A stretch of DNA of 64,000 nt. Source: Maylandia zebra. Lineage: Eukaryota > Chordata > Actinopteri > Cichliformes > Cichlidae. The DNA lies in the NCBI RefSeq assembly GCF_041146795.1, contig NC_135188.1:2091419-2155418 (forward strand), read 5' to 3'. Below the pieces are notes generated by a model. It saw nothing but the letters and a program-made list of their open reading frames with translations. It was not told the DNA's origin and did no database searches. Shown here piece after piece: positions 1 through 60,060 of the stretch. The translations under genes and the position numbers were made by a program. Numbering within the stretch: position 1 is the stretch's first letter; each line of letters opens with the position of its first letter.

Positions 1-375
1 TACAGTGAGTTATTTTGATGGATGTAATTAATGTTTACAATGAAAGTGAATTATATGGTGACTATAATTCCTGAATGTTTGCAACCTTGTAGATAATCTT
101 TAATGTTACTGCAGGTTACAAATAAGTATTGAACCTTGATACTGTGAAATTTTGGATATTGATACTTTGACCTTTGAAACTTGATATTTTAATGTTGTAC
201 AACATGACTGAACTGACGATGATTGAATTGATGATAGCTGATCTGAATCATTGTTACTGTGCACTGTGACACTACTTTAGGTTAATTTGTGAGAGTTATC
301 CTTAAAGGGCACGTGACATATATTTGGCCATTGTTTATAGCTCAGGTTTTTATATGGGACGAATCCAAAGACCTG
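1..375. other. Left edge, no recognised feature
   Basis: AT-rich sequence with no convincing coding potential or recognised repeat. It ends with the CTG at 373-375 that is the left target-site copy of the adjacent Harbinger element. Confidence 0.5.
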
Positions 376-805
376 GGGCCCGTTCTTCGTACCTCGCTAA
401 GTAGGTTAGCCGGATTAGATTGTTGACGATTTCGCGTGATCCTGGATCAGTCGGTTCCCCGAAGCTCATCCGGGACTTGCTGTCATAGCAACAGAGCCGT
501 AAGCGTAAACCTGCTCGGGAGCAGGTTTACTTTATGTAATCAGGATTAGATCGCGGCCACGCAGGTATGTCCGCTTCATTTATACGAAAGCAACAGCGAT
601 ATTTTACCACTGTTGTACCATAAATAAATAACATCAATGTAACTAAAGATAATGCAGCACTTGATCCTTTTATTGATGTCACACAGATACATACAGGTCA
701 TTTCCTAAAAAAAGGGAAATGTACTATTAACATTCTATTACATGTATGTGATTATTACAGATGTAATTCATATTTCAGAGTAGTAATTGTAAATTACTTC
801 GTGTA

Positions 806-1055
806 ATCAAGATGAGAGACCACGGCTATAAAAGCGAAGGTGGATTTGGGAAGCCTGTCGCAGCCATGTCCTGTCCGTATACGCGACCAACCCATTGCGG
901 AAGGTGCAAGATTGATAAGGAGAGTCCTCAGAATTCAGCGTATATTGCGGGACAGACAGGATCCTTTAGCTCAGCGCGACAGTGTGCTCATAGAGAGATA
1001 TCGATATTCCCGTGAGGGTATTATTTACTTAACCAACTTGTTGACGAGGGGGTGC
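806..1055 (+). pseudogene. HARBI1-like transposase, N-terminal remnant
   Basis: Residues such as ARLIRRVLRIQRI and LIERYRYSREGIIYLTNLL align by eye with the N-terminal helical region of Harbinger transposases; the full-length copies nearby have LIERYRF-type equivalents ([10 protein letters not shown]). The reading frame stops being transposase-like after LTNLL, and no IDGTH, VHDS or REM-type catalytic segment follows within the element. This is a deletion relic, not a gene. The start is uncertain because no intact initiator context remains. Confidence 0.7.
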
Positions 1056-1690
1056 AGGACCACCACCTGTCTTTTTTTCCTCTGCCCTTTTCTTGGTTGC
1101 TGTTATGAACAAACTAACAGAGTATTACAGGCCAGTATTACCTTGCCAAGAGACGCAAAGCAATCTAAGAGATAAATATTACCATTCTGTAGAATACTCC
1201 TGTATTCCACTTTTACTTGTTCCCATGTTCTTGTGGGTCCTGTTGTGGCTCTAATGTGAAAGGGGATATAATATAACATATTATAATATAATATAATGCC
1301 ATATGATATTGGACAATATAGTGTCATATGATAGATCTACCCTACCGCCTACTGGTGTTGGCCAGAGGGGCCGATGGCGCGATATGGCAGCCTGGCTACA
1401 ACCGTAGCTGCCTCCACCAGTGTGTGAATGTGGGAGTGAATGAATAGTGGTATCGTAAAGCGCTTTGGGTGCCTTGGAAAGCGCTATATAAACCCAATCC
1501 ATTATTATTATTATTATTAAATTACCTACGAGTTTGATTTGTCAGCAACTTTCTGCCAGCCCTCTCTCCTTGCTTTTGAAGCCTTTGCAGTGTTCTCTTG
1601 CGTTTTAATTAAACTCTGAAACTCCTGAAATCCCTCACTCATGAGTTCTTGCTCTGCTGCCGGAAAATACCGAGCACGCCCCTTGGACAT
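1050..1690 (-). pseudogene. Harbinger Myb-like protein remnant
   Basis: On the minus strand an ATG at 1690-1688 opens a frame beginning MSKGRARYFPAAEQELM and continuing to REGWQKVADKSN, followed by a good donor (GTAGGT after 1530). This is the SANT/Myb trihelix type found in the second Harbinger protein. A later fragment near 1050-1110 reads TKKRAEEKKTGGGPAP, matching the Gly/Pro linker (RKTGGGPPPPP) of the intact copy at 2132. The middle exon with the Trp/Lys-rich third helix was not found, and the intron has been invaded by a retroposon tail. Non-functional relic; strand and domain type fairly secure. Confidence 0.6.
1330..1520 (+). repeat. Short retroposon with L2-like 3' tail and (ATT)n end
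   Basis: A segment ending AAAGCGCTTTGGGTGCC, then AAAGCGCTATATAAACCCA and an ATT repeat. This arrangement is typical of fish SINE/LINE 3' tails of the L2 type. It lies inside the older Harbinger element, so it inserted later. The exact family is not assignable by eye, and the 5' boundary is approximate. Confidence 0.55.
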
Positions 1691-2131
1691 TTTCGCCGAC
1701 CAATCAGCGGGTTGCCGATCAATGTTTCTACTATCGATGCGTAGCCCCTTTTACGACACCCAGTGATGTCACATTCCTGCGTCCAGCTGTAGTAATCGTC
1801 AACAGCAGGTGTGTTCGGGGAACCGGATTAGCGAGCTCACGGTTAGCGCGATGATTTGATCTTGGATGTGTCATTTGATCTTGGATGTAGTAAGCGACGT
1901 ACGAAGAACGGGCCCCTGGGCCCTGTTTCAGGAAGCCGGTTTATTAAACTCAGAGTGAAAAACGATACTCAGGGTTGAGTAACCCCGAACTGTCCAACTC
2001 GGAATATTCGGTTTCAGAAAGGCTGATAACAATTAGTTCAGTCAACGCGGAGTTGCTTTAACCCCAAGTGAAGCGCGCGCACGAGGATACATAAAGCCCT
2101 GATAAGCGGAGCACAGAGTAAGCGAGTCACC

Positions 2132-3314
2132 ATGGAGACGGAGGGAAAGAAGGCGCGGTCAATGTATTTTACAGCGCTTGAGGCCGAAATTCTGATGGCA
2201 GCATATGCCGATAACATGCAAATTTTGCGGAAAAAAAGTAACACAGCCTCAGGTGCCAAAGGAAGGGAGCATGCATGGCAAAACATAGCCGACAGAGTCA
2301 ATGCGTGAGTGTTAATTTAAACATTGATCGAGGGATTTCCACCCATTTAACACATTATTTTATCATATGTTATTTTATTTGTTATTATATACATTTTATT
2401 TTGTGATGTGATGTGAGCGCAGGTGCAACCCAACAGGCCCCAAACGTGCCTGGCAGCAAGTAAAAATGAAATATAAAAATATAGTCCAAACAGGTGAGGT
2501 GTAATTGTATTATGAGCCATAGTGCTTGGTCTGTGTGTCCCATGTAAATCAATTGCAGTTAGAGGCTACATTAATTTTCTTTCTGTAAGCACTTATTGAA
2601 ATTATCTGAGCACATTACAAGTACATATTTGCTTACTCTGTATGCTCAAATGTGGCCCGTTATAGCCAACAGAAAAAAAGCGGAGGCCCGAAAAACAGGT
2701 GGGGGTCCTCCACCACCACCACTCACAGAGGCTGAGCAGTTGGCCCTCAGCCAAAACAGTGGGCGCCCTGTGGCCGAAGGCATCTCTGCGGGGACATCCT
2801 CTGAGTCAATAACCCCGCAAGACACAAGTGCCTACATAGGGGGTAAATTCAAAATAATACATGATGTGCATACATCCTTTCTTCACAGTCACCTTTGCAG
2901 TGCTACTCATTCATTTGATAAACTCTTTACCATAATGGATTATTTTGTAGTGAAGTTATTTTCCTACTGATTTTGCCTTCCCTCAGTCTTGGTTGTCTTT
3001 GAGAGCATAATGACAATGAAGTGTAAGGTGCTTGGTATGTTTGTTAATTGCCATTTGGTCCCTTGTAAGTTATAAGTGACCTGTATAAACCTCATATTCT
3101 ATCAGTTGATGGTGGTGGTGTACTGCATCTGGTGCAGCCTCCTGTTGAGCCAGACCAACATGCAGTTGTGAGTAATACTCCACAGATTATATGAGTTTAC
3201 AGTAGAACAGCAATGTTGTTTATTTCTTTACTGCAGGAAAATAATGAAGAAACATTGACAGCTGTTACAGAGGAGGAAGCAACAGAGACACTTTATGAGG
3301 TTTACATCTTTTAA
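2132..3314 (+). CDS. Harbinger Myb-like (SANT/trihelix) accessory protein, apparently intact
   Basis: Five exons join in phase: 2132-2304, 2423-2493, 2666-2842, 3106-3167 and 3237-3314 (561 nt, 186 aa), all with GT-AG borders. The start METEGKKARSMYFTALEAE precedes a Myb/SANT-like domain over roughly residues 10-80, ending in the Trp/Lys-rich helix RAWQQVKMKYKNIVQ encoded by exon 2. Exon 3 encodes a basic then Gly/Pro linker (NRKKAEARKTGGGPPPPP); the C-terminus is acidic. The domain type is that of NAIF1-like proteins and of the second protein of vertebrate Harbinger transposons, which binds subterminal repeats and escorts the transposase into the nucleus. The other copy (12580-13761) has a frameshift here. 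The last exon is the least certain; the protein could end differently. Confidence 0.8.
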
Positions 3315-3403
3315 TACTTTGTGTACAGGAAACACAGGCGACCAATAAAGCCAGTTGAACAAAAAATCTGTTTATTCTTCTTTCAACATGTTGAGGTGAT
3401 GGG

Positions 3404-4681
3404 TCAAAAGAAATGATTGTGACATATGGTGTCTCTGACTGCTCTTCCATCTTGTATGTCCGTGGGAGGGTCAGGATGTTCATGGTTTGGATCACTGCTG
3501 ATGTTTGGTTCAGAAGGACAGTGTTCTCCTCTAATTGTGGCAATGTTGTGAAGAATCACACATGCCACAATAATGTCACATGCCCTTTCTGGGGTGACCC
3601 TGAGTCTTTGCAGGCACTGGAACCGGGCCTTAAGCATTCCGATAGTCATTTCAATTCTGGCTCTTGTCCTGCAATTAGCCAGATTATATCGCTGCTGTGG
3701 GCCCGGGTCAGGGTAAGGGGTAAGCAAATAGGGTAAACATGGATACCCCCTATCACCAAGCAAGTAGCCAGTGAACTCTCCTAAGACAGAAGGATACACT
3801 TCAGTTCAAATGTCCCTGAAGCAATTGGTCTTTATATATTTTAAAGTATTTTCAACTCACCATGTCCAAATTTTGTGTACATTCACGGAATATTTGTGAG
3901 TCATGGACAGAGCCTGGCCACTTGGCTTCCACATTTGTGATAATGTTGGCAGCATCACATATGATCTTCACAGTGCAGAGAACACAAATTAGCATCCATT
4001 ACTATAATGAAATAATTTGTTAGTTTGAAATGCTACAGGGAACTATGTACCTGTACATTAATGCTGTGGAAGGATTTCCTGTTCACATAGTCTCCTTCAT
4101 TTACTGAAGGAGCAATGATTGGAATGTGAGTGCCATCTATACAGCCAATCACGCCTGGGAACCCTGAAAATAAATGTAGAATTTAAGTAGTAGTCCAGGT
4201 ATCACCACATCATACATTACGTTTTGGTCATCCTGATACCTGCAATTTTGTGGCATCCCTCTTTGATGAATCTTGTGGGTCTATGACCGGGGAACACCAC
4301 AGACGAGTACAGGAGACGTTTCAGTGCTACTGTAACATTCCTGACTGCCCGACAGACGGTAGCCTTGGAAACGTGCTCAGCGTCACCAATATTATACAGA
4401 AAGCTCCCGTTTGCAAAAAACCGAAGTGCAATACAAATAATATGTAATGAACTGAGAGAATGTCCGCGATGTGTCACATGAGCAATATTAGGCCTGAGGA
4501 TGTTATTCAAATAAATTGTAGATTGTGCTGAGAAACGGTAACGTTCGCACAGAAAATCATCAGGAAATGATAAAATGTCCAAACGCGCTCTAATCACTCT
4601 CTCCCGGCGGAGAGCTCTGCGGAGAATTTGGGCTTCACGATCTACTGGCTCTTCAAGGAAGGGACACGCCATGTCCGACAC
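3404..4681 (-). pseudogene. HARBI1-like DDE transposase, frameshifted copy
   Basis: Exons 4681-4240, 4163-4051, 3965-3861 and 3780-3404 correspond one-to-one with the intact copy at 15137-13850. Exon 1 gives the helical N-terminus ([20 protein letters not shown]), exon 2 the first catalytic Asp (GCIDGTHIP), exon 3 the second (GSVHDS), and exon 4 the Glu ([13 protein letters not shown]). Exon 3 lacks 7 nt compared with the other copy: after TTTTGTG the plus strand goes straight to TACATTC, losing CTCAGTG. Exon 3 therefore joins exon 4 out of frame and the Glu-containing segment is lost from the protein. The lost 7 nt lie between two short GTG direct repeats, consistent with slippage. Alternative splicing could in principle rescue the frame, but none is obvious. 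Confidence 0.85.
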
Positions 4682-4901
4682 TTTCTACTGTCAGGTTTCC
4701 GACAAAGGGGCGGAGACAGTCAGGGTTAGTTGTAGTAAACCTGCTAGGGGGCAGGTTAGCTTCACGGCGTGTGTCGTCATAGTGACTCACTCAGGCTTCA
4801 GCTGAACTCGCTTTGTGAAACCGAAAACCCAGAGTTTTCGTTAACTCAGGGTATACTTACTCAGTTTTTCCACTAAACCGGCTTCCTGAAACAGGGCCCA
4901 G

Positions 4902-5735
4902 GTCAGCGATTCCAGAACCCAGAGTGTTCCAGTGTTCACTGGATGGCGAGCCAACCCAAGATCCTAGGAGACGATATACATATACACGCACACTCATTTG
5001 CACATTGATGGACTACAATCCTCTACTGTACAAGTACGGTAGGACATACAATCACACACACTCCTTGTCGGACGAATTCTATTGGAATACACCTGTTTGT
5101 CATGGGTCCCACCGGTACCATTTGGACTTAAAAAAAGACTAATTCTTTTACTTGTGCACAATTTTATTTAATTCTATTTTTTTGCTACTTTGGGGGAAAA
5201 TTTTATACTTGACATTCTGTTAAAACCTGTTGTGATACTGTGTTGTTTACAAATTTATTTTACAAGGCTTAACATCACTAAAGTATTTTTAAAAGCCACA
5301 CAACTGTGTTTGTCTGGTTTCTCTGCCATTCGTGTACCAGAGCTCTAAGAGTCGTTCTCAGTCTTCTGACACTAGCCCAAATTACTCATTACTTTAGTAA
5401 TTATCCATTGGTACTTTATGTAACTCCACGTAAGTGCTACAAACACATGATGTGAAATCACTTAATTAACCTGCTGGATTTGCCAAAAGTTCAAATATTT
5501 ATACTACTTTGGCACATTACTCTTAACTTATTAACAAATTTCCCACGTGTGGGACTAATAAAGGTTATCTTATTAAGTGGCTATTAGTGAGGGTCATGAT
5601 AATCAATTCAATTGAGCAGAAGTGACATTCTTACTTCGATTCGTCCAAATTCATGTGAGTTTCGGTCTGTTCAGCCTGTTTCTGTGTAGCACCAAGCAGC
5701 AGACCTAAACCTGGATGTGCTTCTGGCTTCTGCCT
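4902..5735. other. Intergenic, no recognised gene
   Basis: The first part (4924-5142) stays open on plus for 72 codons, but the translation resembles nothing I know and has no splice or start support. The remainder is AT-rich. No feature is claimed. Confidence 0.4.
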
Positions 5736-5737
5736 CT

Positions 5738-6200
5738 AATCAATCAATCAATCAATCAGTCTTTATTTATAAAGCACTTTTCATACAGAAAAAAAATGTA
5801 GCACAAAGTGCTTTACATAGTTAAAAGCAGCCCACCCCACCCTCCAACTCACTCCCCACACTCTCAATACACATATATCCCCCCACCCACACCCCCACAC
5901 ACACACACACGCGCACACTTAAAGAGTAAAAATTGGGCTGGGCTCGCATGAGCCAAGTGAGGAAACATTATAACAGAGAGCCGTCTGCACCGGGAGCCGG
6001 TCACAGACCGCAGCCTCCGGGATGGGCACACAGCAGGAGGGAGGCCAAGGAGCCCCCCAACCAGGCTGAGAGGACCCCCAGAGACCCAGCAGCCACGGTC
6101 AATAACAGCCCCGGTGCAGAGAGCGCCCTCCGAGGAAACACTGGAGATATGACGCAATACGATGTATACAGGGTAAAATGATAAAATAAATAAGAACAGG
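5738..6200 (-). repeat. LINE-derived 3' end with (TGAT)n tail
   Basis: On plus it begins with a CAATCAATCAATCAATCA run followed by TTTATTTATAAAGCACTTTT, a very common teleost retroposon tail; read on minus it is the 3' end with a TGAT-repeat tail. The following GC-rich part (5930-6160) stays open on both strands but codes nothing recognisable, and an AC-rich low-complexity stretch lies at about 5880-5914. The family (L2, Rex1 or other) is not resolved by eye. Confidence 0.5.
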
Positions 6201-6355
6201 ATACAATATAAATATAAATATAAATAGAGTAAGAAGATTAAAAAATGAATAAGAATAAAATCAATAAATATTAGGTAAAGCCTAAATTAATAATAGAATA
6301 ACAGGATAGAATAAATAAGCATAAAATAAATAAACGTTAAATAAAAGCTAAATTA

Positions 6356-6775
6356 AATCAGAATCAGAATCAGAATCAGAATACTTTATTGATCCCTGGG
6401 GGAAATTATTTTTTGTTACAGTGCTCCATTTTAAACCAACATTAAGACAAGACAGACAATACGCTAACTAAGAATAGTACAATATATACATATATATACA
6501 TACATACATACATAAGTCAGGGTCTTGAGCCTGTTCTTAAAAACATGTACGTTCTCTGCGGCCCTGAGCTCCTCCGGCAGGCTGTTCCACAGACGAGGAC
6601 CATACCACTGAAAAGCTGCCTCTCCGTGAGTATGTGTCCTGACTTTAGGGACAATCAAAAGGCCAGTACCAGAGGACCTCAGGGTCCGCGAGGGTTCGTA
6701 TGATAAAAGCAGATCTGAGAGATAAGAAGGCCCAAGACCATTAAGACATTTAAAAACCAATAAAAGAACTTTAAA
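6356..6775 (-). mobile_element. L2-type LINE, truncated 3' end with reverse-transcriptase C-terminus
   Basis: On minus, 6760-6464 encodes the characteristic extreme C-terminus of fish L2-like LINE ORF2 proteins: KCLNGLGPSYLSDLL, SRTLRSSGTGLL and YGPRLWNSLPEELRAAENV. It is followed by a short 3' UTR ending in GATCAATAAAGTATTCTGAT and a GATTCT repeat (about 6357-6385 on plus). A 5'-truncated, inactive insertion on minus. Family naming is from motif memory. Confidence 0.75.
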
Positions 6776-7408
6776 ATTTTAATGAAAACGGATGAGTGTA
6801 AAATGCAACCATTGTTTGTAGTTTGCTGCCACCTACTGAGTGAAAAAAGAACTGAAGCTGTAAAAAGTCAGTATTCCTAATGATAGGCTTCGTTTTGTTT
6901 CAGTTTCAGTTCACTATACAGCTCATCAAACTGTTTTCCCTTTACGTTTTGATATAATAGCTTTTCAGTACTACTGAGACACATGCTGCCTTTGTCTTCC
7001 GTTAGAGTAATATTTTCTTGAGCTGTGTAACTGGATTTGTTCAAACATAGAGGTAGTTTGGATTCACTGACACAGGAGCCATACGCCCTTTCTGCAGTTT
7101 CTATGCTTCCTTAGCTCGTTTATGTCGCCATTGTTAATCCTGTCCTGTGCAAACAAAAGCCCAAGCTACACTTGTCTGACTGACAGAAGGTTCAAGAGAA
7201 GGACATTTGCTCTCAACTCTTTCCCTGTTGAAATGTTATTCCAAGGAAGTGAGTTTCCTACAGGGTATGGAGGGTTAGTATGTGTTAATGATTTCAGTGT
7301 CATGCAGGGGAAAGCAGCATTCAGTGGAAGCTTCTCGGTGACTGTTTTAAATCCAAATATGACCCTTATTTGTGTCTGTGAAGGTTCTCAGTCATCCAGG
7401 TCATCATA

Positions 7409-7498
7409 GTCAAAGGAGCTTGCAAAGAAAGCTCCTTTGACTTCTTTAAGTTGCAACTTAAAGAAGTCCGGACGCTTTTCTTTGCAAGCTCCTTTGAC
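7409..7498. repeat. Nested palindrome / fold-back repeat
   Basis: GTCAAAGGAGCTTGCAAAGA at 7409 has its inverted counterpart ending CTCCTTTGAC at 7498. Between them is a perfect 26-bp palindrome (7441-7466, CTTCTTTAAG/TTGCAA/CTTAAAGAAG). The left arm is itself followed at once by an inner inverted copy (GCTCCTTTGAC, 7431-7441), so alternative hairpins can form. The preceding GGTTCTCAGTCATCCAGGTC is part of a widespread teleost repeat, so this looks like a rearranged copy of that repeat. Confidence 0.7.
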
Positions 7499-7784
7499 CC
7501 TTATTTGTGGCGCATGTTAACATACAGTCAGCCCAGGAGTTAGTATCAGTGATGTGGTTGTAAAATGAGTAAATACAACCTCAGATTATCACATATTGCA
7601 CAACATCTAAGTTTATTTAGCAAAGGTTGAGTCACAATGCAGAAGCAGTATGTGAAAATCTATACTCTTACTGTTTCCATAGGAATTAAAAAGGTAAGAA
7701 GCAGTCATTTGCTGCTAATAATTTAATGCAAATTTGCAAATGTTAATGCAAGATTTTTTAGGTTAATTAGAAAAATCTCAATTG

Positions 7785-7945
7785 CCCATAGGTGTGAGTG
7801 CGAATGGTTGTCTGTCTCTACGTGTTAGCCCTGCAACAGACTGGCGACCTGTCCAGGGTGTACCCCTCGCCCTATGACAGCTGGGATAGGCTCCAGCACC
7901 CACCGCGACCCTGAAAAGGAGAAGCAGAAGTGAATGGATGAATAC
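7785..7945 (+). repeat. Teleost interspersed repeat, Rex3/RTE-like 3' end
   Basis: Contains the hallmark strings GACTGGCGACCTGTCCAGG and GCTGGGATAGGCTCCAGC, and ends in GTGAATGGATGAATACGATG, a degenerate GATG-type tail. Such sequence is very abundant in fish genomes and is usually a short 3' retroposon end. The family assignment to RTE/Rex3 is from memory. Confidence 0.6.
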
Positions 7946-8458
7946 GATGTTGGGTGAGACTGGGTGGATTTCTGTTTGCTGTTTTGACAATATGAGGCAT
8001 AGTTTGAAGAAATGTGTTTAAGCAATCGAGAAAAACTGTAAAACACTAAAATCTCATTTGTGTTATGATGAAAGTCTTTAATCAAACAGAATTCAAATAT
8101 CAGAAACATTTCACATGTGGAGTTAAAAATGAATCATTGTTTCAACAATTTATTTGTTTTCATAAACAGACAAGAAGACAACAACAATCTGCTCCTCCCA
8201 TTCAACACATGTCAGTCCATATCCCAGCAAACTAAATCATCTCCGTTTACACACATCAAATAGAAACATGAACCACGTGTAATGATTAGACACTTGATGA
8301 ATTTCAAATCTGGTTTGGGGAGTCATTCAGTGAGAAACAGTGAAATGATTTTCAATGTGAAAAGGTGGAGAGCAGGAACAAAAAAGAACTAAAAAAGAAA
8401 CAAAGGGCTTTGGAACCAAGAGGCAGCAGGAGGACAGCTGCAGTTTAACAGCTTCAGC

Positions 8459-9640
8459 TCACTGACAGGAAACAACATGAGAAATATAATCATCCACTGA
8501 CACCTTCACATCATCCCCAGTTTGGATAAATGGAAACATCCTGTGAGCGAAAGTGTGTGTGAAGGTGTGTATGTTAGTATTGGGCCCAGAGAACGACGGC
8601 TTTCCTCTGTTCCAGTCCAGATTCACTCTGATCCTCTGGAGCTTCTTCTGAACTGAGAGAGCAGTGAATCCAGCTGATGGTGAGCGTGTTGAGTATTTAC
8701 CTAAACAGACCACTACTCCCCAAAGCCCAGACTCTATGTTTCCCTTCCTGTTGATAGACTCTTCTACCACACCAAGCATCCAGCTTGTACTGTCTCCAAC
8801 CTCGACATCCCAGCTGTGAGTCCCTGCGTTAAAGCCCTCAGAGCTCATGACAGAATAGAACCAATCAAACCTCTCTGGATTACCAGGAAGCCGCTGCCTC
8901 GCTCCTCCTCTCACTGTTCAGATCTTCAGATAGGATAAGGTCTGGATGAGCAGTGTTTGGGTCCAGAATGAGAGGAGTGCAGGAGACCATGTCCTTCATG
9001 TTGTTCCAGATGTTGAAGGTCAGGTTGCCCAGGTGTTTGGCTCAGTCTATCAGAGCTCCTGAGGGCAGCTGTGGATCATCCAGCAGGGGGCAGCGCTGGA
9101 CTTTTTCCACTGCAGCCTTGTAGTTGTGCAGAAATGAGCCGCCTTCAGCTCTCAGCTCCTCTTCTGCGGCTCTGTGTCTGAAAGAGCTGCTATCTCTCTG
9201 CCCAGAGCCTCCATCTTCTCCTTCATCATCCCTCTCTTCTGCTCCTCTTCCTCCCTCAGTGCGGCCAGCCTGTCCTCCTCTTCCTCTGCTAGAAACTGGT
9301 GAAGCTTCTTAAACTGCTCCTTAATCTGCTTCTCTGTGTGCCGGGCCTGGACCTTAATGTGTTGTGCTGTTTGATCAAACTTCACTTGAATTTCTTCACA
9401 AACCTTTAACTTCTTCTTTAAGGCCTCCAGAGTTTCCTTAAATCCCTTCTTGTTTTGTTGTGCAGCTTCATCGATGGGTCTGAATCTGTGCTTGGTGTGT
9501 TTTTCTGAGCCTCTGCAGACGAGACACGCTGGCTGCTGATGGTCCAGACAGAACAGTTTGAGTTTCTCAGACTGCAGAGAGCCTCTGAAGCTCTCTGATC
9601 TTTCTCCTGTAAGAACAACTCACACAGGTTTTCTTAAAGC
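8459..9640 (-). pseudogene. Intronless, broken TRIM-family gene (B-box, coiled coil, PRY-SPRY)
   Basis: On minus, domains follow in the order of a fish TRIM E3 ligase: a B-box2 remnant (FCLDHQQPACLVCRG, with a following HTKHRF, near 9560-9480), a long coiled coil (9385-9152, rich in Glu/Lys, [19 protein letters not shown]), a linker ([19 protein letters not shown], near 9130-9070), and a PRY-SPRY domain (8914-8459, GTHSWDVEVG, FTALSVQKKLQRIRVNLDW). The frame is broken at least three times: near 9585 before the B-box, near 9150 after the coiled coil, and near 8920 at the PRY start; there is also an in-frame TGA at about 9043 (ALID then stop). No RING domain was seen upstream. Domains that normally lie in separate exons are contiguous, so a processed retrocopy is likely. 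It resembles the btr/TRIM35-like families. Confidence 0.82.
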
Positions 9641-12366
9641 CGGGTTTAAAAGAGCGTCCTCTTTTCGACATTTTCGAGATAGATGATAGATGTCCGGGTT
9701 TTCCTACCCATATGTGTGACGTCATCCCTGAGCTGCTGCTTTGTGAGTTGTTGTTCCGCGCTCACAGACGGGACAGAGCTGCAAAAGAAATTTCCCTCGT
9801 ACCGTCCCGGTACTGGTCATTTTTCTCATTCAGATTAGGCCTTATTTCTCTACCATTATTTAATTCCACTGGCTTTAAGTTTTTTGGGGTTTTTTTGCCC
9901 TTGTTGACTTGTAAAAGCCTATATGACATTTTTTTTGTTTCACCATTCACTAACCGCACCGAGAAGGCATCGTTTAAATGTTTAAAATTATCTTATTTTC
10001 TTCAAGAAAACAGTATTATTAAAGTTTATCATGACTGGGCCGAGTGTCCTCTTTTTTTGGAAATCAAAATATGGTCATCCTACGTGTGTGTGTTTATTTC
10101 GTGTAAACTGCACATTTCTAATTTATTAATTTAAACTACTTCATCTAAACACTAATCAAAACTAGCTAAAATTCTTAAAAGTGTCGAACATAAGCAGCTT
10201 GTACGTTGCTGTTTTCGTAGATACCTTTGTCTCACACGGAACATACATGTTCTAGGGTAAAGCTTCACTTTTTAAAAGTCGGACTCATCACTGCCACGAC
10301 TCAACCGTCTTAAGTCTCGTGAGTTCTACGTGTGCTGTCACGGCACGCGCACACCGCATTTGTACAAATCTTAGAAAGAGGAAGTGACTCGAAAGTTTTG
10401 GTCAGCATCGTTGATGTTCCTGTTGTTCTGCTCAAACTGGTAATCACACACGTTTCAAGTTACACTGAGAACTCACTGATTTAATGCGCATGTAGAGACG
10501 TTCAGTGCAATCAGAAAGACTTTATTTATCCCCAAGGGCCAATTAACAATTAACCTGTTCCTCTTATTTTAAACTGCGAGGTGTGGCGCACGGCATTCAT
10601 ACCAGCTTAATCTGGTACTTTGTGTATACAGGTGGATGTATGGACACTGGATTTATGTCTAATGTTGAAGCAGGCAACATGTAAATGGTCTGGACTGTTC
10701 TGGGAGAACAGAGAAGATGTAAGGATGTTGAGAATTACAGGAATAATAACTAATAGTGAGTCAGTGAAAGATCATCAGCTATCATTATAAGCTCTGCCAT
10801 AATATGTGCCAATATCCTTCATGGTTTGCATTAGATTTGTAAATGTGAGCGAGGCTGACGAGAAGCAGCTGCCACCTTATGCCCTAATGCCAGCGCAGTC
10901 TGACTGCTCAGACGTGCAGATCGTGTGGTAGCCTGGAGCCCAGAGAACACTGTAAAATCAAATGTTTTCATATGTGATTTGTGGGATGCGACTATAAACA
11001 CAGTGTACGGGCTTCGTCTGCTCGGACAGCCTGGTGTGATTCTTTCAGCACGTCAGGAGGTCTCAGCCTGTGTAGCACACTGTGCCTGTTTTTAATTCAG
11101 ACACGTGTGCTTAAAAACAAATCTTTCCCAACTTTGAGTCCTACACTTGGAATGTGACACCATGATGAAGTCTGTCTTTAGTTTGTTTAGAGGCTAAAGA
11201 GAGAGGCTCCCACTAGAGGGATGTTTATTTCAGAGTAACCAGCCAAGAGGGGAAGTCGCCCACTGACGGCAAAAATATGTGTTACAGTTAGGAAACTTCT
11301 GCTCAGTGCAACTCATTAAATCCCAGCACGCTGCGTATTTTCTTTTAGTTATAATCCACAACTTTCCAGATGGCATGTTCAACTTTTCACTCCACCACAA
11401 ATTTTTGACATTTTCTGGTAGTTTAAGGCCAGGGTAAGAAAGAAATCACAGTCCCACCTAAACTGCTGCAACAGTGTAATGCTACATACTTATTAATGCA
11501 TTCATTCAATTAATAATGCGTCTAATAACATTAAGAAAAGCCATCTAGTTTCATTCTTTCACTTTCTTGTAGGTGCCCCGTGCTGCAAATATGTCTGTGC
11601 TATTGTTTCAGTCCCTGCAGAGGCGTTCTGAACCTTTACATGAGCAAAACCAGCAATTCAGAGATTTCTTTTTAAAGCTGAAGATAAAAATGCTCAATTC
11701 TTATGTAAGCAAGCTTAACAATGCTTGCAATGCAATGATGCAAGTATTCAAGTAACAGTAATCATCACATAAAAAAGCACATGTAACAGATTATTACGTC
11801 CATCGTTTTTAAGCAAGAAAAAAAAAACTGAAAATATTGACAAAATGTGGCAATGAAGTAGATGCAGAATAAACGAGCCGTGTTCCTGTACACACCTGTT
11901 CACCTGCACGCGAACACAAATATCTCATCAGCTGATCACAGCGACGCAGGTCTGTGCATTTAGGCACGGTTAAGATGGCACGCTGAAGTTCAAACCAAGC
12001 ATCAGGATGAGGACGTATTTCAGAAGCTGATGGAAAATAGGAAGAAAAGAGTAACTCAGCACGTGTTACAACAAAGGTGTGCAGACGTCCAGATGTTAAA
12101 CCCTGAAGCAGATGAGTTCAGCAGCAGAGGCCAAACTCAGCGTTACTCCTGTCACGTAACTTTTCAGTTTATTCAGAAGCATGCGTTATATTTCACAAAA
12201 CGAGAAACTGGGTTATGTGTAAAATGTGAATTACAAAGAATTTTATAACTGTAATCTAATCTCTGTGTAAACAGCTGTCAGTAAAGTGCACTGGATGTTA
12301 CAACACGGAGGGAGAGAGTTTATTTTCCATAGGTAATAAACTTTGTTGTCATTTGATTCAGAGCAG
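9641..12366. other. Intergenic stretch, mostly unrecognised
   Basis: The 140-codon open frame at 9712-10134 is not recognisable and is probably chance or an old repeat. A degenerate retroposon tail (GACTTTATTTATCCCCAAGG) lies near 10519. The remainder is AT-rich with scattered stops and no RNA gene I can see. The final bases CAG (12364-12366) are the left duplication of Harbinger copy 2. Confidence 0.4.
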
Positions 12367-12579
12367 GGCCCTGTTTCAGGAAGCCGGTTTAGAAAACTCA
12401 GAGTGAAAAACGATACTCAGGGTTGAGTAACCCCGAACTGTCCAACTCGGAATATTCGGTTCCAGAAAGGCTGATAACAAGTAGTTCAATCAACGCGGAG
12501 TTGCTTTAACCCCAAGTGAAGCGCGCGGACGAGGATACATAAAGCCCTGATCAGTGGAGCACAGATTAAGTGAGTCACC

Positions 12580-13761
12580 ATGGAGACGGAGGGAAAGAAG
12601 GCGCGGTCAATGTATTTTACAGCGCTTGAGGCCGAAATTCTGATGGCAGCATATGCCGATAACATGCAAATTCCGCGGAAAAAAGTAACACAGCGACAGC
12701 TGCAAAAGAAAGTGAGCATGCATGGCAAAACATAGCCGACAGAGTCAATGCGTGAGTGTTAATTTAAACATTGATCTAGGGATTTCCACCCATTTAACAC
12801 GTTATTTTATCATATGTTATTTTATTTGTTATTTTATACATTTTATTTTGTGACGTGATGTGAGCGCAGGTGCAACCCAACAGGCCCCAAACGTTCCTGG
12901 CAGCAAGTAAAAATGAAATATAAAAATATAGTCCAAACAGGTGAGGTGTAATTGTATTATGAGCCATAGTGCTTGGTCTGTTTGTCCCATGTAAATCAAT
13001 TGCAGTTAGAGGCTACTTTAATTTTCTTTCTGTAAGCACTTATTGAAATTATCTGAGCACATTACAAGTACATATTTGCTTACTCTGTATGCTCAAATGT
13101 GGCCCGTTATAGCCAACAGAAAAAAAGCGGAGGCCCGAAAAACAGGTGGGGGTCCTCCACCACCACCACTCACAGAGGCTGAGCAGTTGGCCCTCAGCCA
13201 AAACAGTGGGCGCCCTGTGGCCGAAGGCATCTCTGCGGGGACATCCTCTGAGGCAATAAGCCCGCAAGACACAAGTGCCTACATAGGGGGTAAATTCAAA
13301 ATAATACATGATGTGCATACATCCTTTCTTCACAGTCACCTTTGCAGTGCTACTCATTCATTTGATAAACTCTTTACCATAATGGATTATTTTGTAGTGA
13401 AGTTATTTTCCTACTGATTTTGCCTTGCCTCAGTCTTGGTTGTCTTTGAGAGCATAATGACAATGAAGTGTAAGGTGCTTGGTATGTTTGTTAATTGCCA
13501 TTTGGTCCCTTGTAAGTTATAAGTGACCTGTATAAACCTCATATTCTATCAGTTGATGGTGATGGTGTACTGCATCTGGTGCAGCCTCCTGTTGAGCCAG
13601 ACCAACATGCAGTTGTGAGTAATACTCCACAGATTATATGAGTTTACAGTAGAACAGCAATGTTGTTTATTTCTTTACTGCAGGAAAATAATGAAGAAAC
13701 ATTGACAGCTGTTACAGAGGAGGAAGCAACAGAGACACTTTATGAGGTTTACATCTTTTAA
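12580..13761 (+). pseudogene. Harbinger Myb-like protein gene, frameshifted
   Basis: Same five-exon layout as the intact copy at 2132-3314. In exon 1 the A run after GCGG (12677-12682) has six A instead of seven, so codons after RKK change frame and reach TAG at 12733-12735 after about 51 codons, inside the DNA-binding domain. Later exons (for example the RKTGGGPPPPP linker near 13138-13165) remain open but are out of reach. The flanking 20 bp also differ from copy 1 more than elsewhere. A single-base homopolymer difference could be a sequencing or assembly error, in which case this gene would be intact. Confidence 0.8.
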
Positions 13762-13849
13762 TACTTTGTGTACAGGAAACACAGGTGACCAATAAAGCCA
13801 GTTGAACAAAAACCTGTTTATTCTTCTTTCAACATGTTGAGGTGATGGG

Positions 13850-15137
13850 TCAAAAGAAATGATTGTGACATATGGTGTCTCTGACTGCGCTTCCATCTTG
13901 TATGTCCGTGGGAGGGTCAGGATGTTCATGGTTTGGATCACTGCTGTTTGGTTCAGAAGGACAGTGTTCTCCTCTAATTGTGGCAATGTTGTGAAGAATC
14001 ACACATGCCACAATAATGTCACATGCCCTTTCTGGGGTGACTCTGAGCCTTTGCAGGCACTGGAACCGGGCCTTAAGCATTCCGATAGTCATTTCAACTC
14101 TGGCTCTTGTCCTGCAATGAGCCAGATTATATCGCTGCTGTGGGCCCGGTTCAGGGTCAGAGTAAGGGGTAAGCAAATAGGGTAAACATGGATACCCCCT
14201 ATCACCAAGCAAGTAGCCAGTGAACTCTCCTAAGACAGAAGGATACACTTCAGTTCAAATGTCCCTGAAGCAATTGGTCTTTATATATTTTAAAGTATTT
14301 TCAACTCACCATGTCCAAATTTTGTGCTCAGTGTACATTCACGGAATATTTGTGAGTCATGGACAGAGCCTGGCCACTTGGCTTCCACATTTGTGATAAT
14401 GTTGGCAGCATCACATATGATCTTCACAGTGCAGAGAACACAAATTAGCATCCATTACTATAATGAAATAATTTGTTAGTTTGACATGCTACAGGGAACT
14501 ATGTACCTGTACATTAATGCTGTGGAAAGACTTCCTGTTCACATAGTCTCCTTCATTTACTGAAGGAGCAATGATTGGAATGTGAGTACCATCTATACAG
14601 CCAATCACGCCTGGGAACCCTGAAAATAAATGTGCAATTTAAGTAGTAGTCCAAGTATCACCACATCATAAATTAAGTTTTGGTCATCCTGATACCTGCA
14701 ATTTTGTGGCATCCCTCTTTGATAAATCTTGTGGGTCTATGACCGGGGAACACCACAAACGGGTGCAGGAGACGTTTCAGTGCAACTGTAACATTCCTGA
14801 CTGCCCGACAGACGGTAGCCTTGGAAACGTGCTCAGCGTCACCAATATTATACAGAAAGCTCCCGTTTGCAAGAAACCGAAGTGCAATACAAATAATATG
14901 CAATGAACTGAGAGCATGTCCGCGATGTGTCACATGCGTAATATATGGCCTGAGGATGTTATCCAAATAACTTATAGATTGTGCTGAGAAACGGTAACGT
15001 TCGCACAGAAAATCATCAGGAAATGATAAAATGTCCAAACGCGCTCTGATCACTCTCTCCCGGCGGAGAGCTCTGCGGAGAATTTGGGCTTCACGATCTA
15101 CTGGCTCTTCAAGGAAGTGGCACGCCATGTCCGACAC
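13850..15137 (-). CDS. HARBI1-like DDE transposase, apparently intact
   Basis: Four exons join in phase: 15137-14696, 14619-14507, 14421-14310 and 14229-13850 (1047 nt, 348 aa, close to the size of vertebrate HARBI1 and Harbinger transposases). The N-terminus ([20 protein letters not shown]) leads into a helical DNA-binding region with RATVCRA-like helix-turn-helix residues ([11 protein letters not shown]). The catalytic triad is visible: Asp in GCIDGTHIP (about residue 157), Asp in GSVHDS (about 206) and Glu in [13 protein letters not shown] (about 270). The conserved block [19 protein letters not shown] joins exon 3 to exon 4. The enzyme cuts the element ends and integrates at 3-bp CWG targets. 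The partner Myb-like gene of this copy is broken. Expression is unknown, and the start ATG is by analogy with copy 1. Confidence 0.88.
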
Positions 15138-15357
15138 TTCCTACTGTCAGGTTTCCGACAAAGGGGCGGAGACAGTCAGGGTTAGTTGTAGTAAACCTGC
15201 TAGGGGGCAGGTTAGCTTCACGGAGTGTGTCGTCATAGTGACTCACTCAGGCTGCAGCTGAACTCGCTTTGTGAAACCGAAAACCCAGAGTTTTCGTTAA
15301 CTCAGGGTATACTTACTCAGTTTTTCCACTAAACCGGCTTCCTGAAACAGGGCCCAG

Positions 15358-37877: not shown

Positions 37878-60060
<22,183 letters not shown>

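What the first reader, a model, noticed from the sequence alone, without database searches (positions are those of the whole stretch)
1919..15354. Two near-identical Harbinger copies are broken in complementary genes
Copy 1 (1919-4898) keeps an open Myb-like gene (186 aa over five exons) but its transposase lost 7 bp in exon 3. Copy 2 (12367-15354) keeps an open 348-aa transposase with both Asp and the Glu, but its Myb-like gene lost one A at 12677-12682 and stops at 12733. Harbinger mobility is known to need both proteins. The two copies share terminal repeats, so this 13-kb interval could supply a complete two-part system acting in trans, able to mobilise both copies and related MITEs. The breaks are seen directly; trans-complementation is inference.
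Basis: partly seen in the sequence, partly recalled or inferred. Interest (0 to 1): 0.75.

Follow-up and report, generated by a model that had tools for sequence, protein, structure and literature searches.

The report
Two decayed copies, one common transposon
The two jumping-gene copies really are broken in opposite genes, but they are two ordinary members of a young family with many copies, some of which look intact, so the pair is not a special two-part system; copy 1 does turn out to sit end-to-end on a related element, an arrangement that recurs elsewhere in this genome.

Summary
The breaks are real. Copy 1 (1919-4898): open 186-aa Myb-like gene, transposase frame lost through a 7-bp gap. 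Copy 2 (12367-15354): open 345-aa DDE transposase, Myb-like gene frame-shifted (A6, not A7).

The trans-complementing-pair reading is not supported as special. Of 27 full-length copies compared (a capped, copy-1-biased sample), 5 keep both genes open with canonical splice sites. Copy 2's lesion is shared by three other loci, so it is no read error. 235 of 351 pairs are more alike than copies 1 and 2. A random pair looks complementary 11% of the time. Movement in trans does occur: 10 of 39 further copies are one 1.8-kb deletion derivative lacking parts of both genes.

Of 40 X right ends, 7 have this Harbinger exactly at their CWG and 1 has another X; of 39 left ends, none. The middle base of the CWG duplications disagrees (A against T) in 6 of 34 Harbinger and 10 of 34 X copies, more than mutation should give. 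Family: NuwaI-type PIF/Harbinger, a new member of a known kind.

The parts
1919..4898 (.). Harbinger copy 1 (2980 bp)
   Evidence: exact TIR ends; alignment with copy 2
1919..1943 (+). copy 1 left TIR, 25 bp
   Evidence: sequence
4874..4898 (-). copy 1 right TIR, 25 bp
   Evidence: sequence
1916..1918 (.). CTG shared between element X and copy 1 (left triplet of copy 1)
4899..4901 (.). CAG on the right of copy 1: mismatched with the left CTG
2132..3314 (+). copy 1 Myb-like gene, exons 2132-2304, 2423-2493, 2666-2842, 3106-3167, 3237-3314; open, 186 aa
   Evidence: Pfam Myb_DNA-bind_5 2.7e-15
3404..4672 (-). copy 1 transposase gene, exons 4672-4240, 4163-4051, 3965-3861 and an exon 4 from 3780 (open frame of that exon runs to 3404); frame lost, stop near 3646
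   Evidence: 7-bp gap
3874..3875 (-). site where copy 1 lacks 7 bases that the other 26 full-length copies have
12367..15354 (.). Harbinger copy 2 (2988 bp)
12364..12366 (.). copy 2 left target duplication CAG
15355..15357 (.). copy 2 right target duplication CAG
12580..13761 (+). copy 2 Myb-like gene, frame-shifted at the A-run 12679-12684, stop 12733-12735
13850..15128 (-). copy 2 transposase gene, exons 15128-14696, 14619-14507, 14421-14310, 14229-13850; open, 345 aa
   Evidence: Pfam DDE_Tnp_4 5.2e-37
376..1915 (.). element X: 1540-bp internally deleted Harbinger of another family, TIR GGGCCCGTTCTTCGTAC, abutting copy 1
373..375 (.). X left triplet CTG (matches 1916-1918)
858..1058 (+). 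X remnant of a transposase N-terminus (limits read by eye)
   Evidence: 43% over 53 aa to copy 2 transposase; translation
1529..1690 (-). X remnant of Myb-like exon 1 (limits read by eye)
   Evidence: 33% over 52 aa to copy 1 Myb-like protein; Pfam below its cut-off, E 0.045

Best explanation
Copies 1 and 2 are two independent insertions of one young, multi-copy PIF/Harbinger (NuwaI-type, CWG duplication) family that has decayed unevenly. In this family a source element supplies a DDE transposase and a Myb-like DNA-binding protein, and copies move by cut and paste, including defective ones helped in trans. The complementary breaks of the two window copies are a coincidence of decay, not an arranged pair: copy 2's Myb-like lesion is shared with copies at other loci (most simply inherited from a source already broken), and copy 1's transposase gap is seen in copy 1 alone. 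Copy 1 lies at the right-hand CWG of an internally deleted Harbinger element X, most likely because it landed there. Shown: the breaks, the copies with both genes open, the shared lesion, the deletion derivative, the X junction and its recurrence. Inferred: which proteins moved which copies, the order of X and copy 1, and any current activity.
For: Of 27 full-length copies, 15 have an open Myb-like gene, 9 an open transposase and 5 both, under canonical splicing. A6 with a frame-shift is shared by copy 2, L052, L053 and L058, each with its own flanks and matching triplets; L081 has A6 plus a further local change and an open frame. The gap of copy 1 is in 1 of 27. Copy 1-copy 2 identity 97.7%, with 235 of 351 pairs more alike; in the tree they group with L067 and L077. 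One derivative (positions 1-825 joined to 1997-2988 of copy 2) forms 10 of 39 further copies, with matching triplets in 5 of the 10. X-Harbinger junctions at separate loci and in both orientations. Both proteins were required for Harbinger3N_DR and mPing mobility (PMC2836001, passages read).
Against: The 27 copies are a sample biased towards copy 1 (best 40 of 608 first-look candidates; copy 2 itself is not among the 40). 43% of informative site pairs are incompatible, which suggests mosaic copies, though the nearby-site test was only suggestive (37 of 500 shuffles as low). Conversion could therefore have spread A6, and the tree is soft. Independent slippage of the same run is possible (L051, A5). 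One of the five both-open copies (L082) has a changed residue beside the second Asp, so 'open' does not mean active. Nothing here tests expression or protein function.
Confidence: 0.85

Rival explanations
1. One reading: the two copies together act as one autonomous system in trans, copy 1 giving the Myb-like protein and copy 2 the transposase, and move both copies and relatives.
For: Both single genes are open with canonical splice sites and recognisable domains; copy 2 has only 6 private substitutions among 27 copies, so it looks young; trans-movement does occur in the family.
Against: Copies with both genes open exist elsewhere (5 of 27), so the pair is not needed; copy 1 has mismatched triplets (CTG/CAG); no expression evidence; complementarity expected in 11% of random pairs.
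Confidence: 0.1
2. X plus Harbinger is a composite unit: X's left TIR and Harbinger's right TIR moved together, carrying copy 1 to this place.
For: The first four junctions found had the same layout, and the outer triplets agreed in three of the four (not in the window), the inner one differing in L091. L106 also has equal outer and different inner triplets.
Against: L097 and L106 have Harbinger in the opposite orientation on X. X of the window and L089 are 99.2% alike but their Harbinger parts only 97.1% (338 of 351 pairs more alike). Conversion among Harbinger copies could blur this second point.
Confidence: 0.1
3. The breaks are sequencing or assembly errors.
For: One break is in a homopolymer, the classic error site; L051 shows A5 at the same run.
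Against: A6 on the same CCGCGG background at several separate loci, and a 7-bp gap is not a typical homopolymer error.
Confidence: 0.04

Closest known systems
NuwaI group of the PHIS (PIF/Harbinger-ISL2EU-Spy) superfamily (PMC4482050: section 7 and passages read)
   Same: CWG target duplication, separate DDE transposase and Myb/SANT genes, TIR length within 12-61 bp.
   Different: About 3.0 kb here against an average of about 4.5 kb for NuwaI autonomous candidates; with the CWG assigned to the target the Harbinger TIR starts GGC, not the usual GGG (X starts GGG); the middle base of the duplication often disagrees.
Harbinger elements of teleost fish, e.g. Harbinger3_DR of zebrafish (PMC9179366: abstract, introduction and first part of results; PMC2836001: passages)
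   Same: Two genes, TIR about 25 bp, 3-bp duplication, two proteins needed for movement.
   Different: No sequence of a named fish family could be compared here, so which family it is remains open.
mPing/Ping/Pong of rice (PMC2836001 and PMC4561436: passages read)
   Same: Non-autonomous copies moved in trans by two proteins; duplication with an A/T middle base; non-matching duplications studied as excision substrates.
   Different: TTA/TAA in place of CWG; plant element; no end-to-end hot spot is mentioned in the passages I read.

Membership tests
PIF/Harbinger | DDE_Tnp_4 transposase with D, D, E | tested here: met
   PF13359 5.2e-37 over the whole profile; motifs CIDGTH, GDRGYP, VEMTIG in copy 2. 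Naming these three as the triad is from recall.
PIF/Harbinger | second gene with a Myb/SANT-like domain | tested here: met
   PF13873 2.7e-15 in copy 1
PIF/Harbinger | TIR of 25-50 bp and 3-bp target duplication | tested here: met
   25-bp TIR; matching triplets in 28 of 37 copies with both ends
NuwaI group | CWG target duplication | tested here: met
   34 of 37 copies with both ends have CWG on both sides; W disagrees in 6 of these 34
NuwaI group | TIR usually starting GGG | tested here: inconclusive
   Harbinger starts GGC after CWG; X starts GGG
NuwaI group | transposase falls in the NuwaI clade | not testable with these tools
   no named eukaryotic transposase sequences available; no relative among solved structures by sequence
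autonomous Harbinger | both genes intact in one copy | tested here: not met
   neither window copy; 5 of 27 full-length copies have both genes open

The most novel reading that the evidence does not exclude
In this genome CWG-type Harbinger elements favour one end of resident X elements as a landing site, possibly because the DNA-binding Myb-like protein docks on X's right subterminal repeats, and the incoming element keeps the 3-base overhang of its old site, which pairs with the new CWG and leaves mismatched middle bases. Elements would thus stack end to end and carry a one-base memory of where they came from.
Probability: 0.25. Interest if true: 0.55.

Novelty: new member of a known kind. 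Interest (0 to 1): 0.35.

Why it matters
As a pair of broken copies it matters little; it shows ordinary decay in a family with other members whose genes are open. The wider data set is more useful: a young two-gene transposon family with open copies, a lesion shared between loci and a deletion derivative gives a natural test of movement in trans, and the end-to-end junctions on X and the mismatched CWG triplets make target choice and the excision and insertion chemistry of CWG Harbingers open to testing.

Tried and rejected
Relatives outside the genome: copy 2's transposase in viral contigs gave no relative; the 18-bp TIR gave 0 stretches in viral contigs and 41 in prokaryotic genomes, which I take as chance matches of an 18-mer in a very large collection, did not test further and did not use. 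Solved structures by sequence: no match at E up to 1 for the Myb-like protein and only E 0.69-0.7 matches to unrelated ligases for the transposase. No tRNA and no Rfam family at its gathering score in the window. Structure prediction was not tried: the spliced proteins are not read letter for letter from the DNA, and the sequence-level domains were already clear.

Composite-unit idea for X plus Harbinger: favoured at first on four loci, put second after opposite orientations were found. Selection by codon position: only a weak third-position excess in the transposase (segregating 11.2, 9.8, 14.5% at positions 1, 2, 3), none in the Myb-like gene (11.2, 8.0, 8.0%), noncoding 11.5%: not used as an argument. 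Local recombination test: 37 of 500 shuffles as low as observed, suggestive only. Splice forms of copy 2's Myb-like gene that avoid the stop exist on paper (six combinations), but all shorten or alter the Myb-like domain.

Papers: nine searches; two searches found none. Passages of PMC9587614 (composite-like Kolobok elements) and PMC2213677 (PIF/Harbinger of Medicago, nested insertions) were read and show nothing like the one-sided junctions; other listed papers not named in this report were seen as listings only.

Whole-genome counts of A6 and of the junctions were wanted but not obtained: the genome search answered only.
Full report
What is there. The window holds two Harbinger-type DNA transposons at 1919-4898 and 12367-15354. 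An 18-base TIR probe with up to three mismatches finds their four ends and nothing else (mean 0.06 in shuffles). Aligned with each other they differ by substitutions and a handful of indels; over aligned bases of the element they are 97.7% identical. Gene models read from the sequence give a plus-strand Myb-like gene of five exons and a minus-strand transposase gene of four exons, with GT-AG introns. Pfam confirms both (Myb_DNA-bind_5 2.7e-15; DDE_Tnp_4 5.2e-37).

The breaks. Copy 1's Myb-like gene is open (186 aa). Its transposase lacks 7 bp in exon 3 and shifts frame before the second Asp. Its Myb-like gene has A6 where copy 1 has A7 and stops at 12733-12735.

One caveat on copy 1. Exon 4 begins TTAG|GAG|AG|TTC. 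With the canonical donor, use of the AG five bases downstream would leave an open 340-aa frame. It is a possibility on paper; no RNA is available.

The genome. The assembly holding the window (962 Mb, 63 contigs) was reachable only twice by search. A search with copy 1's first 682 bp gave 40 places at 96-100% over all or nearly all of the query, copy 1 included and copy 2 not, plus one short piece, from 608 first-look candidates. I fetched the other 39. 25 are full length; with copies 1 and 2 that makes 27 compared. 10 of the 39 share one internal deletion (positions 1-825 joined to 1997-2988 of copy 2), and 4 are otherwise rearranged or interrupted (L051, L056, L057, L084). The sample is capped and biased towards copy 1's 5' end.

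State of the genes. Requiring a start, no early stop and canonical splice sites, 15 of 27 have an open Myb-like gene, 9 of 27 an open transposase, and 5 of 27 both. In 11 of 27 the first transposase intron ends AC instead of AG; I counted these as broken. 'Open' is not 'active': L082, one of the five, has a changed residue beside the second Asp, and L075, counted as transposase-open, is altered just after it. From this table 10 copies are Myb-only and 4 transposase-only, so two random copies are complementary with chance 11%. Copies with both genes open exist; the window pair is not needed to explain mobility.

Shared lesion. Copy 2's A6 frame-shift is also in L052, L053 and L058, all with the same CCGCGG background. 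L081 has A6 with a further local change and an open Myb-like frame. Among all 41 copies the run is A7 in 33, A6 in 7 (L073 and L077 by an A-to-G change without loss of length) and A5 in 1. CCGCGG copies with A7 also exist (L071, L075, L078, L087). The four frame-shifted copies have different flanks and matching triplets. So this is unlikely to be a homopolymer read error. Most simply, the lesion was inherited from a broken source that moved with help from other copies. Against this: 4477 of 10296 informative site pairs are incompatible, so copies may be mosaics, conversion could have spread the lesion, and the tree is soft. The recombination test on nearby sites was only suggestive (37 of 500 shuffles as low as observed).

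Movement in trans. The clearest evidence is the deletion derivative: by its coordinates it lacks the end of the Myb-like gene (part of exon 3 and exons 4-5) and of the transposase gene (part of exon 3 and exon 4, with the second Asp and the Glu). It shares one breakpoint and sits at 10 places, 5 with matching triplets. Hence proteins from other copies have moved defective ones.

Copies 1 and 2 are not a special pair. 235 of 351 full-length pairs are more alike than they are. Copy 1 has 14 private substitutions and copy 2 has 6 (mean 6.9 over 27).

Copy 1's left flank is another element, X (376-1915), with ends GGGCCCGTTCTTCGTAC and CTG on both sides. X carries remnants of a related transposase (43% over 53 aa) and Myb-like gene (33% over 52 aa), so it is an internally deleted Harbinger of another family. 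X and copy 1 share a single CTG. The same junction stands at L089, L090 and L091, and at L092 a deleted Harbinger abuts a second, itself rearranged, Harbinger through one CAG.

How often. A search with 419 bases of X's right part (ending with the window's CTG) gave 40 places at 99-100% over all or nearly all of the query, plus one at 93%, from 742 candidates. I examined the right ends of all 40 and the left ends of 39 (L112's is missing). Harbinger ends abut the right end in 7 of 40 (window, L089, L097, L106, L116, L123, L128; the last three seen by about 30 bases only). In L097 and L106 the Harbinger lies the other way round from the window and L089. Another X abuts in 1 of 40. At left ends no Harbinger or X end was found in 39 (Fisher two-sided p = 0.005). 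Three of the 40 (L104, L129 and the C18 locus L122) are one repeated locus by their flanks, so 8 of 38 against 0 of 37 is the fairer count; I did not recompute p. At that locus L104 and L129 read X-CAG-flank, while C18 reads X-CAG-X(inverted)-CAG-flank, so one X lies at the right-hand CAG of another; whether C18 gained it or the others lost it by precise excision is open.

Reading of the junctions. Opposite orientations and unequal divergence (X of the window and L089 99.2% alike; their Harbinger parts 97.1%) speak for repeated independent insertion rather than one composite unit. Against that, L091 and L106 have equal outer triplets with a different inner one, as a moving unit would. CCWGG occurs about 1,680 times per Mb in the rest of the window, so X right ends at 4 of 41 Harbinger left flanks is far above random use of such sites; X's copy number is known only as first-look candidates, so I give no factor. 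The triplet context is the same at both X ends, so a right-end bias should come from further inside; the right end carries a short direct repeat (window 1854-1869 and 1873-1888) that I do not see at the left. Docking of the Myb-like protein there is my inference.

Mismatched triplets. Where both sides are CWG, the middle base disagrees in 6 of 34 Harbinger copies and 10 of 34 X copies (10 of 32 with the repeated locus counted once). By contrast the outer C or G is changed in 6 of 76 copies with both ends, over four such positions each (L055, L072, L076, L109, L114, L127), and the middle base is C or G on one side in 3 of 76 (L076, L093, L110). The 20 X copies read whole or nearly whole are 98.6-99.5% identical to the window's X. 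Mutation should therefore not explain 16 of 68 A/T disagreements. In rice mPing, cleavage at the duplication is proposed to leave 3-base overhangs, and non-matching duplications moved less well in yeast (PMC4561436, passages read). I suggest that old-site overhangs are sometimes kept at the new site; this is inference. It also suggests that copy 1 (CTG/CAG) is a weak substrate.

Place among known things. CWG duplications, separate DDE and Myb/SANT genes and TIR length fit NuwaI of the PHIS superfamily (PMC4482050, section 7), whose 16 host animals there include 12 bony fish. Teleost Harbingers are described in PMC9179366 (abstract, introduction and first part of the results read). That both proteins are needed is from PMC2836001 (passages). 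The host is probably a ray-finned fish, which is inference. Paper searches touching end-to-end insertion brought nothing on it among what I opened; they cover open-access papers only, most listed papers were not opened, and I recall work on nested MITE multimers in cereals, so I claim no priority.

Verdict. The end-to-end hot spot and the mismatched triplets are the parts worth following.

Noticed in passing
window 376-1918: Internally deleted Harbinger element X abuts copy 1 through one CTG; Harbinger abuts 7 of 40 sampled X right ends and 0 of 39 left ends.
   Followed up: yes
L122 (C18:29993410-29993560), L104, L129: One repeated locus with a single X (L104, L129) and with two X in inverted order (C18): a natural filled and empty pair; gain or precise loss not resolved.
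   Followed up: partly
copies L050-L088 and X copies L093-L130: Middle base of the CWG duplication disagrees in 6 of 34 Harbinger and 10 of 34 X copies.
   Followed up: partly
full-length copies, transposase intron 1 acceptor: 11 of 27 copies read AC in place of AG at this acceptor; an in-frame CAG lies nine bases downstream. These could be a subfamily with altered splicing or a broken transposase.
   Followed up: no
L050, L055, L066, L074, L076, L078, L079, L080, L083, L087: One deletion derivative of about 1.8 kb makes up 10 of 39 fetched copies.
   Followed up: partly
L092 (C9:12610500-12617500): A deleted Harbinger and a second, rearranged Harbinger abut head to tail with one shared CAG.
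   Followed up: partly
L054, right flank: A piece of an inverted Harbinger right end without its TIR lies directly beyond the CAG.
   Followed up: no
window 8462-9619, minus strand: Open frames with PRY/SPRY and B-box domains (TRIM-like) between the two copies.
   Followed up: no
window 50348-51043, plus strand: 232-aa open frame with a weak DZF N-terminal match, below Pfam's cut-off.
   Followed up: no
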